Assembly: GCA_035561515.1 (NCBI GenBank)
Contig: DATMXP010000039.1
Coordinates: forward strand, 124,001 to 188,000
Direction of reading: 5' to 3'
Length of the DNA stretch: 64,000 nucleotides
Origin: Terriglobales bacterium
GTDB taxonomy: Bacteria > Acidobacteriota > Terriglobia > Terriglobales > Acidobacteriaceae
Below the pieces are notes generated by a model. The model saw only the letters and a program-made list of their open reading frames with translations, was not told the origin of the DNA and searched no databases. Positions 2,815 to 34,727 of this stretch are shown here, in pieces. The position numbers and the translations under genes were made by a program. Numbering within the stretch: position 1 is the first letter of the stretch; each line of letters begins with the position of its first letter.

Positions 2815-3786
2815 TTAGTCTCGTGGGGCGAAGTATCCCTTTCGACACTCAACCCGTAGTTTCGGGTTTCTGGAATTCAAACTCAGCGTGCGATAACGGC
2901 CGTCGGACTGGAATTCAGCGGGCTTGTAAGCCAGTACGTACTGGCTTCTCAGTGCCTGCTCAACCTTCTTGAATGCGCGAGCCACCTCCTCGTCACGGTA
3001 CGCGGAGAGCAACTCGCCCCCGGTGAATCGGCTAAGCAGAGCGAGCACAGCTTCACCTTGCGTGTACTCCGTGCTGTCGTTGGAGCTGAGTGCATAGATC
3101 GGCGCTTCGGCGCGCAGCGCCGCTTCCTGGGCGTCGCGCATGATGGCGTGGTCTCCGTTGCTGACACCATCACTGATCAACACGATTATGTTTCGGGTAC
3201 CGAGCTCAGGCTGTTTACGCAGTTGTTCGCTCGCGAAGACAACGGCGTCGTAGAGCGCCGTATCGCCTTCGACCTTGAGGTTCTGCAGAGCATTCGTCAA
3301 CTTTTTGAGGTCGTTCGTGAAGCCTTGCTCCAAGTGTGGCTTCTGGTTGAAGCCAACCACCATCGCTTTATCTACCGCTGGTCGAAGAATCTTCTTGAAG
3401 AAGGCGTTCGCGGCTTCCTTCTCGAACTTGAAACGGTAATTGACCGAACCGCTGATATCGATCAACAGCACAACGCGCAAGCTCTCCTGTTCGAACGTGT
3501 GGATTCGCTCCGGAGGTCGATGGTCATCAAGCACCTCGAAGTCATGCATCGTGAGATTGCTTATAAAGCGGCCCTTGCGGTCCACGACTGTAAAGAGAAG
3601 CTGGACCTCGTCGACGCGCTTCTTGTATGTAAACGAATCTTCCGTGAAGGCTTCAGTATTGTTAAGTGCCGCAATGCTCGGCTGTGGCGGGACTTGGCCA
3701 CGGAGTTCGAGACCAGGCATAACCGTGATCGATATGCAGGCGATCAGGGCAAATCGCAACGTGCGCGTCCAATTCGAAACGGACAC
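2815..3786 (-). CDS. secreted VWFA-related domain protein
   Basis: A von Willebrand factor A domain protein of the acidobacterial 'VWFA-related' kind. I chose the GTG at 3786 because GGAGG precedes it by five bases; the longer frame to 3852 has no ribosome site. The resulting 323 residues begin with a signal sequence (SNWTRTLRFALIACISITV). A short conserved lead-in (LLFTVVDRKGRFISNL) precedes the VWA fold, which opens with VVLLIDISGS, a complete D-x-S-x-S metal-ion-dependent adhesion site. The domain continues to near the C-terminus. The role is unknown; extracellular protein-protein interaction is the usual inference. Confidence 0.85.
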   Translation of the reverse strand: MSVSNWTRTLRFALIACISITVMPGLELRGQVPPQPSIAALNNTEAFTEDSFTYKKRVDEVQLLFTVVDRKGRFISNLTMHDFEVLDDHRPPERIHTFEQESLRVVLLIDISGSVNYRFKFEKEAANAFFKKILRPAVDKAMVVGFNQKPHLEQGFTNDLKKLTNALQNLKVEGDTALYDAVVFASEQLRKQPELGTRNIIVLISDGVSNGDHAIMRDAQEAALRAEAPIYALSSNDSTEYTQGEAVLALLSRFTGGELLSAYRDEEVARAFKKVEQALRSQYVLAYKPAEFQSDGRYRTLSLNSRNPKLRVECRKGYFAPRD

Positions 3787-28538: not shown

Positions 28539-29333
28539 TTATGCGAGCGATCTGGTCGGACGAAACTCCGGATCCGCCAATCCGGAGCAGCCATTTTTGC
28601 GGTCCTTCACTAACCGTAATTTCCCCGGCGCTGGTTCGTCCCCGACGTCCACCGACTTGTTTGCATGCCAGAACGAATAAATCCAGATGATGAGCGCCAC
28701 GGTGTCAAAAACCGGAACGACCTGCATATACATCTTCTGTTGAGGTGCGCCGAACAGGAAAGCCGAAACCCTGGGCCAGAAGGTTTGAAAGGCAAATGCC
28801 GCGACGATGCCGACCGCGATCCCGGTGTCGCGTTCCTGCCAGGGAACGGAGTAGGAACGGGAGAACATGATCGTCACCGCCATAAATCCGAACACCGCCA
28901 TCCCGAGACCGCGTTGCATTCCGATAAGACCTTCCATGATTGGAAATGGGCCATTGGAGGTCAGGTGCAATGACGCCGCGACAAACACCGCCGAAATGCA
29001 GGTGGCCATTCGGATCAAAGTCAGTTTCATGCTGCGTGGCAACCATCTGGCACGGTCGGTGACGGAGTCAAACACCTCGTGAACCACACAGAACAGCAGC
29101 GCGAAAGTGAATAATTGGCCAAGCCAGTACGCATAGAAATAGAACCTGATGCTTAAGAAAACAGTTGCGAGTAGCAGGACAGATTCGCTGATGACCTTGA
29201 AGAGAATGAATGCGCTGAACGCTGGAAAATCACGCCGATGTTCCGGCCTCCTCAAAATTGTTGCGAGCGCCAGGAACAGCCCTATGTTCACGACAAGAGC
29301 CAGGTAGGTTTGGATGGGAATGAATGCCTTCAT
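28539..29333 (-). CDS. hypothetical integral membrane protein, 264 aa
   Basis: I do not recognise a named family. The product has about seven transmembrane helices, starting with YLALVVNIGLFLALATIL and then FPAFSAFILFKVISESVLLL, with short loops and a C-terminal soluble tail of about 35 residues. Such seven-helix hypothetical proteins are frequent in Acidobacteria, often in paralogous groups. It is downstream of a tiny exported peptide gene on the same strand (gap 58 bases) and may be co-transcribed with it. No catalytic motif is visible. Confidence 0.75.
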   Translation of the reverse strand: MKAFIPIQTYLALVVNIGLFLALATILRRPEHRRDFPAFSAFILFKVISESVLLLATVFLSIRFYFYAYWLGQLFTFALLFCVVHEVFDSVTDRARWLPRSMKLTLIRMATCISAVFVAASLHLTSNGPFPIMEGLIGMQRGLGMAVFGFMAVTIMFSRSYSVPWQERDTGIAVGIVAAFAFQTFWPRVSAFLFGAPQQKMYMQVVPVFDTVALIIWIYSFWHANKSVDVGDEPAPGKLRLVKDRKNGCSGLADPEFRPTRSLA

Positions 29334-29391
29334 GCAAGGGCCGCAAGAGCTCTCTTGCGACCCAATGTATCACGAGCTTGCACGAGCCCCG

Positions 29392-29526
29392 TTACTGAGG
29401 GCAGATCTCGGGTGGACAGATGGGCGGAGCGGCCGTCACCGGAACGTTTGAGGACCGGGTGGAACTCAGCATCACCGTTGCGGAAAGTACCAGGGTTGCG
29501 GCAATTACGAACAAGCGTTTTGTCAT
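29392..29526 (-). CDS. putative exported 44-aa Pro/Cys peptide
   Basis: A short frame beginning MTKRLFVIAATLVLSATVML, a good signal sequence, followed by a small mature part ending in ICPPEICPQ, with two cysteines in a repeated I-C-P pattern. AGGAG lies eight bases before the ATG. That ribosome site forms the 3' arm of a perfect 9-bp hairpin (29535-29557), so translation may be structurally controlled. Codon use and the signal peptide support a real gene, but its length makes it unproven. Confidence 0.6.
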   Translation of the reverse strand: MTKRLFVIAATLVLSATVMLSSTRSSNVPVTAAPPICPPEICPQ

Positions 29527-29534
29527 CTGACTGT

Positions 29535-29557
29535 CTCCTGCGCTGTTTGCGCAGGAG
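29535..29557 (-). promoter_or_regulatory. hairpin sequestering a ribosome binding site
   Basis: On the minus strand CTCCTGCGC-AAACA-GCGCAGGAG; the AGGAG Shine-Dalgarno of the 44-residue peptide gene is fully inside the second arm. Confidence 0.5.
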
Positions 29558-29906
29558 AAGAATCAGGCACCATATCGTGATCGGCAAGGTAACGAAGGTT
29601 TTCGGTCGCACCCCGCGGCTGAAAATATCGGGTTGCGATGCGACCGTAGAACATAGGTGCTCGAACCGGAGGCACAGGAAAAAACGGTCTCAATGCACTG
29701 TCCGCTTGAGTTCGAATGGCGTTGCTCGGTTGCTGATCGGCAACTCGGTCGCATGCGGGTCTGAACTCTTCAGTTACTCTCTTTTGATTTTGTCCAGACT
29801 GCTGGACTGAGATTTCGGGGCATTCTCCACTTCCGTAACTCCCCAGTTGCAGCTCGGGTGCCATTCCCAAAATTGCATCTTCAACATTCCATTGGAAATA
29901 GAGTTC

Positions 29907-29942
29907 TTGACGTATTACATATTGCAATACTAGTATTGCAAT
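29907..29942 (+). promoter_or_regulatory. promoter with a 22-bp perfect palindrome, XRE operon
   Basis: A TTGACG -35 box (29907-29912) is 18 bases before TAGTAT (29931-29936). A perfect 22-bp palindrome spans 29921-29942 and is itself made of two ATTGCAAT palindromes separated by six bases. It covers the -10 box, ten bases before the ATG of the XRE regulator, which suggests autorepression. Confidence 0.7.
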
Positions 29943-29951
29943 CCGTAATTT

Positions 29952-30449
29952 ATGAAGCTAGGCGAAAAACTACGGTACTTGCGGCTCATGGAAGGCACCC
30001 TACGCGGCCTCGAACGGGAGATGACCCAGAAGGAACTGGGCGAGGCCCTGAAGAAAGAGACCGGCCGTTCTCTCAGCCAGGGTTACCTCTCCCAGATCGA
30101 AAGCGGAGCCCGTCCGCATTTGACCAATGAGTCCCGCATGCTCCTTGCCAGGTTCTTCAAGGTGCATCCGGGCTACTTGGTCGACGACCCCGAGGGCTAC
30201 CACACCGAACTGGTTTCTCCTGTTCGAGTGCTGGAAGACACTTTGGACTTGTGGCTTATCAGCGGCGCCGAGCGCTTCCGTCGCGACCCGGAAATTTGCC
30301 ACGCCCTTCTGCAACTCGCGAAGCATGGCGATTCCCGCAAGTGCGTGGTCCTGATGGCCGCCATTTTGGAAACGCCAGAACTGGTGGACCGGCTGATGGA
30401 AGTGCTCAAGCCGGAGAAGGCCGCCGCAAAGGCAGGTGAAGCGATATGA
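29952..30449 (+). CDS. XRE-family HTH transcriptional regulator
   Basis: A 165-residue regulator. The N-terminal XRE helix-turn-helix (residues 5-65) includes MTQKELGEALKKETGRSLSQ and GYLSQIESGARPHLTNESRM, the typical recognition helix. The C-terminal half is all-alpha (LEDTLDLWLISGAERFRRD onward) and may bind a ligand or a partner; I do not recognise it. It is the first gene of an operon with NfeD, DUF4019, flotillin, a micropeptide and PspA. A palindrome over its own -10 box suggests self-repression, with the membrane genes as co-targets. Confidence 0.88.
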   Translation: MKLGEKLRYLRLMEGTLRGLEREMTQKELGEALKKETGRSLSQGYLSQIESGARPHLTNESRMLLARFFKVHPGYLVDDPEGYHTELVSPVRVLEDTLDLWLISGAERFRRDPEICHALLQLAKHGDSRKCVVLMAAILETPELVDRLMEVLKPEKAAAKAGEAI

Positions 30450-31078
30450 CGTGGGCTGATTTTTACCTGATCTGTTTCGTCGTTGGACTGTTGCTGAGCG
30501 TGTTGGCGTTTATCTTGGGCGACCTGCACCTGCACATCCACCTGCCGTTCCACATCCATTTGCCGAATTTCGATTTCGGTCACGTGGACTCCGGCCACGG
30601 AATAGGAGCTGGAGATGCTGGCGGTTTGCCTGCCATCAACTTCGGCACGCTGACCACATTCCTTGCATGGTTCGGGGGAATTGGATACCTGCTGGTGAGG
30701 CACTCGAACCTCTACGCCTTGTCCGCGCTCGGAGTGGCGTTCTTCGGAGGGCTGGTCGGAGCCGCGATCGTCTTCTTCGTAATCAGCCGTGTGTTCCTGC
30801 GCAACGAAGCGGACTACATCGCGGACGACGGCGACATGGTCGGAGTGCTGGGGCGAATCACCAGTTCCGTCTTCCAGGGCGGAACAGGGGAGCTCACTTA
30901 CGTCCAGGGTGGCACGCGCCACAGTTGCGCCGCGCGGACCGACGACGGCAGCGCCATCTCCAAGGGAACCGAGGTAGTGGTCACTAGATATGACCGTGGC
31001 GTCGCTTACGTGAAGCCGTGGGAAGAATTGGAAGAGGAATACGCCAACGGCTCGGGCGCGGACAGCAAGCAGTCTTGA
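30446..31078 (+). CDS. NfeD-like membrane protein with His-rich loop
   Basis: A 210-residue protein: one N-terminal helix, a His-rich segment (H28, H30, H32, H36, H38, H46, H51), two or three further helices (FGTLTTFLAWFGGIGYLLV, LSALGVAFFGGLVGAAIVFF), then a C-terminal OB-fold NfeD domain (GMVGVLGRITSSVFQGGTGE onward). NfeD proteins are encoded next to flotillins and act with them in membrane microdomains. The alternating H-x-H pattern is not usual for the family and could bind metal. It overlaps the XRE gene by four bases. Confidence 0.85.
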   Translation: MTWADFYLICFVVGLLLSVLAFILGDLHLHIHLPFHIHLPNFDFGHVDSGHGIGAGDAGGLPAINFGTLTTFLAWFGGIGYLLVRHSNLYALSALGVAFFGGLVGAAIVFFVISRVFLRNEADYIADDGDMVGVLGRITSSVFQGGTGELTYVQGGTRHSCAARTDDGSAISKGTEVVVTRYDRGVAYVKPWEELEEEYANGSGADSKQS

Positions 31079-31089
31079 GAGGAGAGACC

Positions 31090-31503
31090 ATGAAAAGGGC
31101 AGTAACAATCGTTTTGGTAGTGATCGCCTTAACCGCAGTGCTTGCAGCGCAAGACAAGCAAACCCAGGCCGCGCAGAAGTCAGCCGAGAGCTGGCTCGCG
31201 ATGGTCGACAGCGGCAGTTACGACGGCAGCTGGGACGAAGCGGCTTCGATCTTCAAGAACGCAATCACCAAGGAGCAATGGAAGAAGGCCGTCACCACCG
31301 CCCGCGGTCCTTTGGGCAAGCTGGTTTCACGCAAGCTGAAGTCGGCGCAGTTCACGACCGAGCTGCCTGGTGCTCCCGACGGCAAGTATGTGGTGATCCA
31401 GTACGAAACGTCGTTCGAGAACAAGAAGTCGGCCGTCGAGACCATCACTCCCATGCTCGACAAAGATGGGCAGTGGCGCGTTTCGGGGTATTTCATTCGC
31501 TGA
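31090..31503 (+). CDS. DUF4019-type exported protein
   Basis: A 137-residue protein with a signal peptide (MKRAVTIVLVVIALTAVLAA, cleaved near AAQ) and a DUF4019 domain: AAQKSAESWLAMVDSGSYDG with SWDEAASIFK, then KYVVIQYETSFENKKSAVET and a final WRVSGYFIR. The fold is cystatin-like/NTF2-like. GGAGAG precedes the ATG. Its position between NfeD and flotillin makes it a periplasmic member of the same membrane module. Function is unknown for the family. Confidence 0.85.
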   Translation: MKRAVTIVLVVIALTAVLAAQDKQTQAAQKSAESWLAMVDSGSYDGSWDEAASIFKNAITKEQWKKAVTTARGPLGKLVSRKLKSAQFTTELPGAPDGKYVVIQYETSFENKKSAVETITPMLDKDGQWRVSGYFIR

Positions 31504-31583
31504 AGTTTGGGGACGGCGCCACGGCACGCCCGTGGCGCTTTGCAGTGCAGTGACGGTCAATCACCGTCTTAACAAGGAGGCAT

Positions 31584-33050
31584 ATGAATTCCATACCTAT
31601 GGATGTCTGGATTATCAGTGGCCTGATCGTCCTGGCGTTCTTTCTTATCTTCGGTGTGTTTGCGCGCTTGTATCGGAAGGTGGGTCCGAATGAAGCTCTG
31701 ATCGTGTTCGGGTTCCGCAGGACGAGAATCCGCAAAGGCCACGGTACGCTGGTGATTCCCATGCTCGAAAACTGCCACGAGCTTTCGCTCGAATTGATGT
31801 CCTTCGACGTAGCGCCGCAGCAGGACCTTTACACCAAGCAGGGCGTCGCCGTAACGGTGGAAGCCGTGGCGCAGATCAAGGTCAAGTCCGATGACGAGTC
31901 GATCCTCACCGCTGCCGAGCAGTTCCTCACCAAAACGCCGCCGCAGCGCGAAGGCCTGATCCGCCTTGTGATGGAAGGCCACCTGCGTGGCATCATCGGC
32001 CAGCTCACGGTCGAAGAAATCGTGAAGCAGCCCGAAATGGTAAGCGATCGCATGCGTTCCACCTGCGCGGAAGACATGAGCAAGATGGGACTGGAAGTGA
32101 TCTCGTTCACCATCAAGGAAGTCCGCGACAAGAATGAGTACATCGCGAACATGGGACGCCCTGACGTTGCTCGCATCAAGCGCGACGCTGACGTGGCCGC
32201 CGCCGAAGCCGAGCGCGACACCGCCATCAAGCGGGCGCTCGCACAGCGCGAAGCCGCCGTCGCGAAGGCGCAGGCCGACCAGGAACGCGTTCAGGCTGAA
32301 ACCGCCTCCCAGGCTAAACAGGCGGAAGCCACGCGCGACCTCGAAGTCAAGAAAGCTCAGTACCTGGAGATCACCAAGCGTCAGCAGGCACAGGCCGACA
32401 AGGCTTACGAGATCCAGACCAACGTCATGCAGCAGCAGGTCGTTGCCGAGCAGGTGAAGGTCATACAGGTCGAGAAGCTCGAACAGGTGAAGGTGCAGGA
32501 CGCCGAAATCGCTCGCCGCGAAAAGGAACTCATCGCCACCGTGCTGAAGCAGGCGGAGATCGAGCGCCAGCGCATCGAGACGCTCGCCCAGGCCGAGAAA
32601 CAGCGCTTGCTCTTCGAAGCTGAGGGCCACGCCGCTTCCATCCAGAAACAGGGTGAAGCCGAAGCCAACATCATCTTTGCCAAGGGCGAGGCGGAAGCGA
32701 AGGCGATGAACGTGAAGGCCGAAGCGTACCAGGAGTACAACCAGGCCGCCGTCATCGACAAGCTGATTACCGGCTTGCCCGAGGTCGTGCGTGCTCTGTC
32801 GGCTCCGTTAAGCCAGGTGGATCGTATCACCGTGGTCTCCACCGGCAACGGCAACTCCGCGGGCGTGAACAAGATCACCGGCGACATCGCGCAGATGGCG
32901 GCCCAAGTCCCGGCACTGTTCGAGGCCCTGTCCGGCATGAACGTGCACGACTTGCTCTCGAAGGTCCGCACCATTGGTGACAAATCGCCCAAGCCGGCCC
33001 TCGATGCCGCGCAGAACGAAGAAGCAAAGGCTGCATCGAGCAGCCAGTAA
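31584..33050 (+). CDS. flotillin family protein (FloT/YqiK-like)
   Basis: A 488-residue membrane scaffold protein. The N-terminal helix (DVWIISGLIVLAFFLIFGVF) is followed by an SPFH/PHB domain (roughly 30-210, KVGPNEALIVFGFRRTRI to MGRPDVARIK) and a long Ala/Glu/Gln/Lys coiled coil (210-400) with repeated AEAxR and EKQ heptads. The C-terminal part (LITGLPEVVRALSAPLSQVD onward) is the flotillin oligomerisation region. AAGGAGG lies before the ATG. Flotillins organise membrane microdomains and buffer membrane stress, usually with NfeD, as here. Confidence 0.94.
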   Translation: MNSIPMDVWIISGLIVLAFFLIFGVFARLYRKVGPNEALIVFGFRRTRIRKGHGTLVIPMLENCHELSLELMSFDVAPQQDLYTKQGVAVTVEAVAQIKVKSDDESILTAAEQFLTKTPPQREGLIRLVMEGHLRGIIGQLTVEEIVKQPEMVSDRMRSTCAEDMSKMGLEVISFTIKEVRDKNEYIANMGRPDVARIKRDADVAAAEAERDTAIKRALAQREAAVAKAQADQERVQAETASQAKQAEATRDLEVKKAQYLEITKRQQAQADKAYEIQTNVMQQQVVAEQVKVIQVEKLEQVKVQDAEIARREKELIATVLKQAEIERQRIETLAQAEKQRLLFEAEGHAASIQKQGEAEANIIFAKGEAEAKAMNVKAEAYQEYNQAAVIDKLITGLPEVVRALSAPLSQVDRITVVSTGNGNSAGVNKITGDIAQMAAQVPALFEALSGMNVHDLLSKVRTIGDKSPKPALDAAQNEEAKAASSSQ

Positions 33051-33113
33051 CCATGGCTCCCATCCTCGTCGGCATTTCGGCGAGGATGGGAACTTCACCG
33101 AAAGAGGAGTGAG

Positions 33114-33278
33114 ATGAAGCGGAAGTTCACTGGGATCGGGTTGGGGCTTGCGGCCGGAGTGGGATTAGGTGCCGCTCTCGGCGTCGCAGCCGGCTCAGTC
33201 GCCGTCTGGTTGGCTGCTGGCATGGCCTTTGGGATCCTGTTCATGGCAGCCGCGCAAAGAGTTTCCAAGCAGCAGTAG
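33114..33278 (+). CDS. Gly-zipper micropeptide, 54 aa
   Basis: A short frame beginning MKRKFTGIGLGLAAGVGLGA, preceded by AAAGAGGAGTGAG. The product is almost entirely one or two Gly/Ala-rich hydrophobic helices with G-x3-G spacing, then a basic tail ending KQQ. Glycine-zipper helices pack against one another in membranes, so it may oligomerise or bind flotillin or PspA. It is 63 bases after the flotillin stop and 31 bases before pspA, all on one strand. No homologue is known to me. Confidence 0.75.
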   Translation: MKRKFTGIGLGLAAGVGLGAALGVAAGSVAVWLAAGMAFGILFMAAAQRVSKQQ

Positions 33279-33309
33279 CAAGATCGCAATCGTAGAAAGG
33301 AGTTGAGCG

Positions 33310-33978
33310 ATGGCTTTATTGGAACGTGTAACCACGCTGGTTCGTGCCAATTTAAACGACCTCGTTGATCGGGCCGAGAATCCCGAAAAGATGATCAAAC
33401 AGGTCATCCTTGATATGCAGAATCAGTTCATGCAGGTGAAGACGCAGGTGGCCATTGCCATCGCCGACCTTCACTTGCTCGAGAAGAAAAAGAAGGAGAA
33501 CCTCGACAAGGAATCCGAATGGATGCGCAAAGCGGATCTCGCCGTTGGCAAGAAAGACGACGCGCTCGCCCGGGCCGCCCTCGAACGTGCTCTCTCGTTC
33601 AAGCTGATGGCCACGAACTTCGACGAGCAAATCGCCGATCAGAAAGTTCAGGTCGACCTTCTTCGCGAAGCCCTCAGCAAGCTTGAGCAGAAGATCGCTG
33701 AAGCCGAATCGAAGTCCGAGTTGCTGATCGCGCAGCACCGTCGTTCGAAGGCCGTGGGCCGTGCTGCCGACGCCAGTTCCGCCGCCGATTCTCGCGACAA
33801 GACCGCCACCTTCGATCGCATGAAGAACAAGGTCATGCGCGAAGAGGCCATCAACCAGGCCAAGGCGGAAGTCGAGGGCAGCGGCGAAATCGAGCGCAAG
33901 TTCGCCCAGATGGAAAAGGACGAACAGATCGACAAGCTGCTCGCCGAAATCAAGGCGCGAAAAATGTTGTCTGCGTAA
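33310..33978 (+). CDS. pspA: PspA/IM30 family membrane-stress protein
   Basis: A 222-residue, almost wholly coiled-coil protein of the PspA/Vipp1 (ESCRT-III-like) family that coats and repairs the inner membrane. It starts MALLERVTTLVRANLNDLVD with the amphipathic first helix, then AENPEKMIKQVILDMQNQFM, a family hallmark. The later helices are continuous heptads to KIKARKML. AAAGGAGTTGAGCG precedes the ATG. It closes the XRE-NfeD-DUF4019-flotillin operon and is followed by a strong terminator. Confidence 0.93.
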   Translation: MALLERVTTLVRANLNDLVDRAENPEKMIKQVILDMQNQFMQVKTQVAIAIADLHLLEKKKKENLDKESEWMRKADLAVGKKDDALARAALERALSFKLMATNFDEQIADQKVQVDLLREALSKLEQKIAEAESKSELLIAQHRRSKAVGRAADASSAADSRDKTATFDRMKNKVMREEAINQAKAEVEGSGEIERKFAQMEKDEQIDKLLAEIKARKMLSA

Positions 33979-33990
33979 TCACGATGCGGG

Positions 33991-34026
33991 AAAAGAGGCT
34001 CTGTCTAGGGCCTCTTTTCTTTTTTT
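33991..34026 (+). terminator. Rho-independent terminator of the flotillin-PspA operon
   Basis: AAAAGAGGC / GCCTCTTTT with a ten-base loop, then CTTTTTTTTCG, 13 bases after the pspA stop. Confidence 0.9.
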
Positions 34027-34043
34027 CGCATCCATCTTGTAGC

Positions 34044-34727
34044 ATGTTGCTCAAGATGGCGGAACCAAACGCAAGCATTAACTCCTTCTTCATCGAAGGG
34101 CCCGCTGGCCGGCTTGAAGCTCTCCTCAACGCCGGCTCGCCCGATGCGAAATATGCCGCGCTGGTGTGCCATCCCCACCCGCTCTATGGCGGCACCATGC
34201 ACAACAAGGTTGTGTATCACGCGGCCAAGGCGCTTAATTCCTTCGGATTCCCGGTACTCCGCTTCAACTTTCGCGGTGCCGGTCTCAGCGAGGGCGAACA
34301 CGCCCACGGCCGCGGCGAAATTGACGACGTTCGCGCCGCCCTTCACTGGCTCACATCCAAGTTCAATCGGCCCATCGTCTTCGCCGGATTTTCCTTCGGT
34401 GCCTCTACGGGTATGCGCGCCTGCTGTCCCGATCCCGACGTGAAGTTCCTCATCTCACTGGGAACACCCGTCGCTGCCGAAGGCCGCGTTTATGCTTACA
34501 AGTTCCTCGCGGACTGCCCCAAGCCCAAGCTATTCGTCAGCGGCGACTCCGACCCTTACGGCCCCGTCTCCGAGCTTCAACGAGTCGAGCACAACGCCGC
34601 GCCGCCGAAGAAACTCGTGATCGTTCCCAACGCAGGGCACTTCTTCGAAGGGCAGCTTCCTGTCATGCGTCACACCATCGAGCAATGGATTCGCGAAAAC
34701 GTTCTGCCGGAGTTAAAAACCGCATGA
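34044..34727 (+). CDS. alpha/beta hydrolase (COG2945-like)
   Basis: A 227-residue alpha/beta hydrolase. The first strands hold CHPHPLYGGTMHNKVV, characteristic of the COG2945 group, followed by FNFRGAGLSEG (oxyanion region), the nucleophile elbow GFSFGAST and the catalytic His in NAGHFFEG near the end. The acidic residue is likely the Asp in SGDSDPYGP. ATG codons at 34044 and 34056 are both possible and neither has a clear ribosome site. It overlaps the glycerate kinase gene by four bases (ATGA). Substrate unknown. Confidence 0.88.
   Translation: MLLKMAEPNASINSFFIEGPAGRLEALLNAGSPDAKYAALVCHPHPLYGGTMHNKVVYHAAKALNSFGFPVLRFNFRGAGLSEGEHAHGRGEIDDVRAALHWLTSKFNRPIVFAGFSFGASTGMRACCPDPDVKFLISLGTPVAAEGRVYAYKFLADCPKPKLFVSGDSDPYGPVSELQRVEHNAAPPKKLVIVPNAGHFFEGQLPVMRHTIEQWIRENVLPELKTA

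What the first reader, a model, noticed from the sequence alone, without database searches (positions are those of the whole stretch)
29907..29942. Perfect 22-bp palindrome over the -10 box of the XRE-flotillin operon
The palindrome (29921-29942) is built from two ATTGCAAT palindromes and covers the likely TAGTAT -10. It is a strong candidate operator for the XRE protein encoded directly after it, so the membrane-stress operon would be self-repressed.
Basis: partly seen in the sequence, partly recalled or inferred. Interest (0 to 1): 0.6.

Follow-up and report, generated by a model that had tools for sequence, protein, structure and literature searches.

The report
Self-control switch for membrane-stress operon
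A 36-base DNA element in front of a membrane-protection operon of an acidobacterium (first reported as a 22-base palindrome) is conserved across many relatives, always together with the regulator gene beside it, so it is very probably the docking site through which that regulator controls its own operon; binding itself has not been shown.

Summary
The palindrome ATTGCAATACTAGTATTGCAAT (29921-29942) is real and is the only copy in the genome. Alone it is only mildly surprising: 1 of 60 simulated windows had one as long. Relatives settle it. The real unit is 36 bp (29914-29949): two 15-bp dyads, each ATnnC-N5-GnnAT, separated by 6 bp, centres 21 bp apart, lying between a conserved -35 TTGAC and the XRE start codon, with the -10 between and partly inside them. 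It was found in 92 of 99 XRE promoters; a held-out matrix found it in 19 of 19. In 250 class genomes every site at E<=0.01 (61 genomes) lies in one of the 68 genomes with this XRE, none in the 182 without. Where a gene is inserted between promoter and XRE, the site stays with the promoter. In about 10 relatives a further copy precedes a second, unlinked pspA operon. The XRE protein is closest to EspR of Mycobacterium tuberculosis by sequence and fold. Best reading: an EspR-like XRE represses its own XRE-NfeD-like-flotillin-PspA operon by binding as two adjacent dimers over the promoter. The operator-regulator link is strongly supported; repression, cooperativity and signal are inferred. A new operator and regulon of a familiar kind.

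The parts
29907..29912 (+). -35 box TTGACG; TTGAC lies -1 to 6 bp before the operator in 75 of 92 relatives
29914..29928 (.). operator module A, ATTACATATTGCAAT (15-bp dyad ATnnC-N5-GnnAT)
   Evidence: also found by model R1
29921..29942 (.). the reported perfect 22-bp palindrome: inner half-sites of modules A and B plus the linker
29929..29934 (.). 6-bp linker ACTAGT between the modules (7 bp in a few relatives)
29931..29936 (+). -10 box TAGTAT, 18 bp after the -35
   Evidence: consensus match only
29935..29949 (.). operator module B, ATTGCAATCCGTAAT, ending 2 bp before the XRE start codon
29952..30449 (+). XRE regulator (HTH_3), 165 aa, closest solved relative EspR
30446..31078 (+). 210-aa membrane protein, NfeD-like by position only
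   Evidence: no Pfam match
31090..31503 (+). DUF4019 protein, accessory gene of this lineage
   Evidence: seen in 1 of 80 related loci
31584..33050 (+). flotillin (Band_7 and Flot domains)
33114..33278 (+). 54-aa ORF, no family match
33310..33978 (+). PspA/IM30 protein, last gene of the operon
33988..34021 (+). intrinsic terminator right after pspA, followed by a T run
   Evidence: -27.7 kcal/mol, z -6.3

Best explanation
The element at 29914-29949 is the operator of the XRE protein encoded 2 bp downstream. One XRE dimer binds module A, in the spacer just downstream of the -35. A second binds module B, over the likely transcription start and up to the start codon. The -10 box lies between and partly inside them. 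The centres are 21 bp (two helical turns) apart, so the dimers sit on the same face and probably bind cooperatively. Bound XRE excludes RNA polymerase and so represses the XRE-NfeD-like-flotillin-PspA operon, which ends at a terminator after pspA. Envelope stress would release the XRE by an unknown signal. Shown: the element, its extent, its conservation, its restriction to XRE-bearing genomes, and a copy at a second pspA operon in some relatives. Inferred: physical binding, repression, cooperativity and the signal.
For: Element in 92 of 99 XRE promoters, 33-54 bits against at most -4 in 1980 shuffles; 19 of 19 held-out promoters, operator identity 0.70 against 0.26 in the flank. Invariant ATnnC-N5-GnnAT twice, geometry of two HTH dimers. 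At E<=0.01 in 61 of 68 XRE-bearing and 0 of 182 XRE-less class genomes; 55 of 57 against 0 of 93 in family f6, the two exceptions carrying a 7-bp-linker form. Site stays with the promoter where a gene is inserted before XRE. Extra copies before a second pspA operon. Recognition region nearly invariant. EspR, the closest solved relative, binds TTTGC[TC][GA] and its own promoter cooperatively (PMC3315491).
Against: No binding or expression data. Repression is read from position only. XRE, flotillin and element are gained and lost as one cassette, so co-occurrence at the operon alone cannot single out XRE as the binder. The window's modules are imperfect (5/7 and 4/7 symmetric pairs), and no covariation across the dyads was seen.
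Confidence: 0.85

Rival explanations
1. The element is the XRE's site, but XRE activates the operon (as ClgR is placed in the psp operon of Mycobacterium tuberculosis) or acts both ways.
For: ClgR, a Cro-like HTH protein, is part of the M. tuberculosis psp operon (PMC11237479); that ClgR activates is from my own knowledge. EspR itself is described as controlling genes both positively and negatively (PMC3315491).
Against: The site fills the -35/-10 spacer, the -10 and the likely start site; activators of a promoter with a near-consensus -35 usually bind upstream of it.
Confidence: 0.1
2. The element is bound by another DNA-binding protein of the cell, for example a nucleoid protein or a second XRE, and only happens to lie before this XRE gene.
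For: No binding experiment exists; the cassette moves as a unit, so linkage alone does not prove the binder.
Against: At E<=0.01 the element is absent from all 182 class genomes and 93 f6 genomes without this XRE, and unlinked extra copies occur only in XRE-bearing genomes.
Confidence: 0.04
3. A chance palindrome, or a hairpin acting in the leader RNA.
For: A 22-bp palindrome arises in about 1 of 60 simulated windows of this composition.
Against: With the -10 at 29931-29936, transcription starts inside module B, so most of the palindrome is not in the RNA. Conservation across the class excludes chance.
Confidence: 0.01

Closest known systems
EspR of Mycobacterium tuberculosis (3QF3, 3QWG, 3R1F, 4NDW) and its autoregulated promoter
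   Same: Closest solved relative by sequence (E 1e-5 with a profile) and best fold match (Z 10.1). Consensus TTTGC[TC][GA] shares the TTGC core; EspR binds its own promoter cooperatively at an inverted repeat (PMC3315491).
   Different: EspR binds hundreds of sites as a nucleoid-associated protein, with inverted motifs 16 bp apart at its own promoter and a proposed dimer-of-dimers mode with one HTH per dimer. Here one tight 36-bp site per genome is usual and half-sites are 10 bp apart. No psp operon is linked to EspR.
PspA operons with band 7/FloT, NfeD and HTH genes in Acidobacteriota (PMC9239133)
   Same: The same gene neighbourhood; that survey already suggested that the HTH proteins may regulate the operon.
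   Different: In the passages found, that paper names no operator or binding site for these operons; operator, regulon and EspR relation are added here.
ClgR-PspA operon of Mycobacterium tuberculosis (PMC11237479)
   Same: A Cro-like HTH regulator encoded within a pspA operon.
   Different: Regulator not shown to be orthologous; ClgR is, from my own knowledge, an activator with another DNA motif; no flotillin.
XRE autorepressors with tandem dyads over their own promoter (phage repressors, DdrO)
   Same: Adjacent dyads over -35/-10 (the phage and DdrO promoter comparison is from my own knowledge), the regulator gene directly downstream, and the same HTH fold.
   Different: A different DNA sequence, C-terminal domain and target operon.

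Membership tests
EspR-like XRE regulators | Sequence similarity over the HTH region | tested here: met
   phmmer E 2e-4, profile E 1e-5, residues 25-84, only EspR chains at E<=0.01 with the profile
EspR-like XRE regulators | N-terminal HTH plus helical C-terminal dimerisation domain | tested here: inconclusive
   Model has HTH helices 3-69 and C-terminal helices 94-163, but inter-domain confidence is low and only residues 1-110 align to EspR; other HTH repressors score within 1 Z
EspR-like XRE regulators | Binding through one HTH per dimer, as a dimer of dimers | not testable with these tools
   Needs a complex structure or footprint
Autoregulatory XRE operator | Conserved dyad site overlapping the promoter of the regulator's own gene | tested here: met
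Autoregulatory XRE operator | Site occurs only where the regulator occurs | tested here: met
   61 of 68 against 0 of 182 at E<=0.01; 55 of 57 against 0 of 93
Autoregulatory XRE operator | Regulator binds the site and represses | not testable with these tools
   Needs gel shift and reporter assays
Psp (PspA) membrane-stress system | PspA/IM30 protein in the operon | tested here: met
   PF04012 E 9e-36, residues 3-219
Psp (PspA) membrane-stress system | Induction by envelope stress | not testable with these tools
   No expression data are held.

The most novel reading that the evidence does not exclude
A distinct way of wiring a Psp response: an EspR-type repressor binding as two adjacent dimers takes the place of PspF, ClgR or LiaRS in Acidobacteriota. 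Release would be driven by PspA or flotillin taking the repressor to the damaged membrane. In family f6 the same repressor has also taken over a second pspA operon and some genes for probably secreted proteins.
Probability: 0.35. Interest if true: 0.6.

Novelty: new member of a known kind. Interest (0 to 1): 0.45.

Why it matters
Control of the Psp response outside a few model groups (PspF, LiaRS and ClgR systems) is poorly known. This gives a named regulator, an exact operator, a second target operon and clear mutations to test, in a phylum that is abundant in soil. It also offers a natural comparison for how an EspR-type protein chooses its DNA.

Tried and rejected
Scoring the 22-bp perfect palindrome as the unit: rejected, because only 3 of 92 promoters are perfect there, while the invariant columns fall on four half-sites. 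A hairpin in the leader: rejected from the promoter position. Extra sites in the window genome: none up to E 10; the 2-3-mismatch pattern hits are no commoner than the control. The five class genomes without XRE that have weak hits (E 0.015-0.038) are fewer than chance predicts for 182 genomes at E<=0.05. Covariation across the dyads: no excess over column independence; positions 3 and 13 avoid symmetry (25% against 45% expected). Association of the second pspA operon with XRE across genomes: suggestive only; the 5 XRE-less f6 genomes with its first gene have no site, but about two thirds of XRE-bearing ones also lack it there. In one search the start offset was wrong for four truncated loci (L259, L262, L272, L274), so their scores are not used. 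Two sites (L164, L208) precede no recognisable gene on their strand. NCBIfam gave no name for the XRE. A literature search for a described XRE operator in Acidobacteria found none.

Full report
Observation. The sequence at 29921-29942 is ATTGCAATACTAGTATTGCAAT, a perfect 22-bp palindrome with ATTGCAAT at each end. TTGACG (29907-29912) and TAGTAT (29931-29936) with an 18-bp spacer are the only sigma-70-like pair in 29300-34100. The core occurs once in the genome of 5.41 Mb. By itself the palindrome is only mildly unlikely: 1 of 60 first-order simulations of the window reached 22 bp. Everything decisive comes from relatives.

Surroundings. The XRE gene (29952-30449) starts 2 bp after the element. 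It is followed by a 210-aa membrane protein (NfeD-like by position only, no Pfam match), a DUF4019 protein, a flotillin (Band_7 + Flot), a 54-aa ORF and a PspA/IM30 protein. A strong intrinsic terminator follows pspA (-27.7 kcal/mol, z -6.3). In 80 related contigs (Acidobacteriota by their record titles, mostly Terriglobia) the order XRE, NfeD-like, flotillin, PspA is kept nearly everywhere that the contig is long enough (L051 lacks a detected NfeD-like gene). DUF4019 was detected in only one of them, so it is an accessory gene. In 61 near genomes the XRE and the flotillin occur in the same 21, and the DNA element in 20 of those at E<=0.01, in the last (G038) as two weak half hits. It is a cassette present or absent as a whole.

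The conserved element. In 99 non-redundant XRE promoters a 36-bp ungapped motif was found in 92, at 33-54 bits against at most -4 in 1980 shuffles. Of the other seven, L040, L087, L090 and L096 carry what look like indel or diverged variants, L006 and L020 have the site farther upstream, and L095 has none in the stretch searched. A matrix from the genome-contig loci alone found the site in 19 of 19 held-out family promoters at 29.7-49 bits, with the next best site at most 13.9. Mean pairwise identity is 0.70 inside the element and 0.26, about random, at -60 to -21, so shared ancestry without selection does not explain it. Invariant columns give ATnnC-N5-GnnAT, a 6-bp linker, then ATnnC-N5-GnnAT (the first A of each module is nearly invariant). 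Half-site centres lie 10 bp apart within a module and module centres 21 bp apart, which suits two HTH dimers on one face of the helix (inference from geometry). In the window these are 29914-29928 and 29935-29949. TTGAC lies -1 to 6 bp before the site in 75 of 92, and the ATG follows the site directly in 53 of 92. With the -10 at the linker, transcription should start inside module B, leaving a leader of about 8-10 nt without a Shine-Dalgarno sequence (inference).

Who binds it. A sequence model (R1) was searched in 250 genomes of the class. At E<=0.01 the element occurs in 61 genomes, all among the 68 with the XRE, and in none of 182 without it. In 150 genomes of another family (f6), 55 have it, all within the 57 with the XRE. 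The two exceptions carry the same two modules with a 7-bp linker. In G028 and G007, where an extra gene sits between promoter and XRE, the site lies about 540 bp upstream of the XRE, ahead of that gene. In f6 extra copies, each behind a TTGAC, precede a second operon: a small protein without a Pfam match, a second PspA (PF04012, E 3e-41 and 2e-38 in the two tested) and a third gene, in about 10 genomes. A genome-wide motif search that knows nothing of function thus lands on a second pspA operon. This is the strongest sign that the element is the control site of a Psp regulon and not just part of the XRE locus. A few further sites precede genes for probably secreted proteins; these are leads only. 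Outside the class the site is also present in G623, G637 and G432 and appears diverged in G648 and G599.

The regulator. The XRE is closest to EspR of Mycobacterium tuberculosis among solved structures, and the AlphaFold model (pLDDT 78, pTM 0.51) has EspR as best fold match, though other HTH repressors score nearly as high. EspR recognises TTTGC[TC][GA] and is autoregulated with cooperative binding (PMC3315491). The acidobacterial half-site has the same TTGC core. The region that should hold the recognition helix (S42 to N59, around SQxYLSQIE) is nearly invariant, in keeping with the constant half-sites.

Mechanism. Best supported: XRE dimers on modules A and B cover spacer, -10 and start site and keep the operon low, and also limit XRE itself. 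Stress releases them. Shown here: the element, its extent, its conservation and its co-occurrence with XRE. Inferred: binding, repression, cooperativity and the inducing signal. Activation is the main rival and is disfavoured by position. Because the cassette is lost as a unit, co-occurrence at the operon alone cannot prove which of its products binds; the unlinked copies, found only in XRE-bearing genomes, and the HTH of the XRE make it the obvious binder.

What is known. A 2022 survey already reported PspA with band 7/FloT, NfeD and HTH proteins in Acidobacteriota and suggested that the HTH proteins may regulate the operon (PMC9239133). No operator turned up in the passages found there or in a literature search. 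The kind of system, an autoregulatory XRE repressor with tandem dyads over its promoter, is familiar; the operator, the regulon and the EspR link are new as far as I could find. Hence: a new member of a known kind, of moderate interest, and directly testable.

Noticed in passing
29936-29952: The XRE start codon has no Shine-Dalgarno sequence and the predicted leader is only about 8-10 nt; in 53 of 92 relatives the ATG directly follows the operator, so the mRNA is probably leaderless-like.
   Followed up: partly
31090-31503: A DUF4019 gene sits between the NfeD-like and flotillin genes here but was detected in only 1 of 80 related loci.
   Followed up: partly
2928-2947: A second perfect palindrome of 20 bp, AAGCCAGTACGTACTGGCTT.
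   Followed up: no
L165, L166, L210, L212, L215, L217, L218, L231, L233: The same operator precedes an unlinked operon of a small protein without Pfam match, a second PspA and a third gene in family f6 genomes.
   Followed up: yes
L167, L168, L224, L227, L230: Operator-like sites with a TTGAC precede genes for probably secreted proteins (carboxypeptidase-regulatory-like domain, DUF3738, others), a possible lineage-specific regulon expansion.
   Followed up: partly
L164 (site 3275-3310) and L208: Two of the best-scoring sites (52-53 bits), in genomes G090 and G350 of one genus (g78), precede no recognisable gene on their strand.
   Followed up: no
operator positions 3 and 13 (29916 and 29926): These symmetric positions of module A match each other less often than chance (25% against 45% expected), as if one strong and one weak half-site were preferred; unexplained.
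   Followed up: no
L171:3434-3997 (G028): A truncated second flotillin copy lies in tandem with the full one in the operon of this relative.
   Followed up: no
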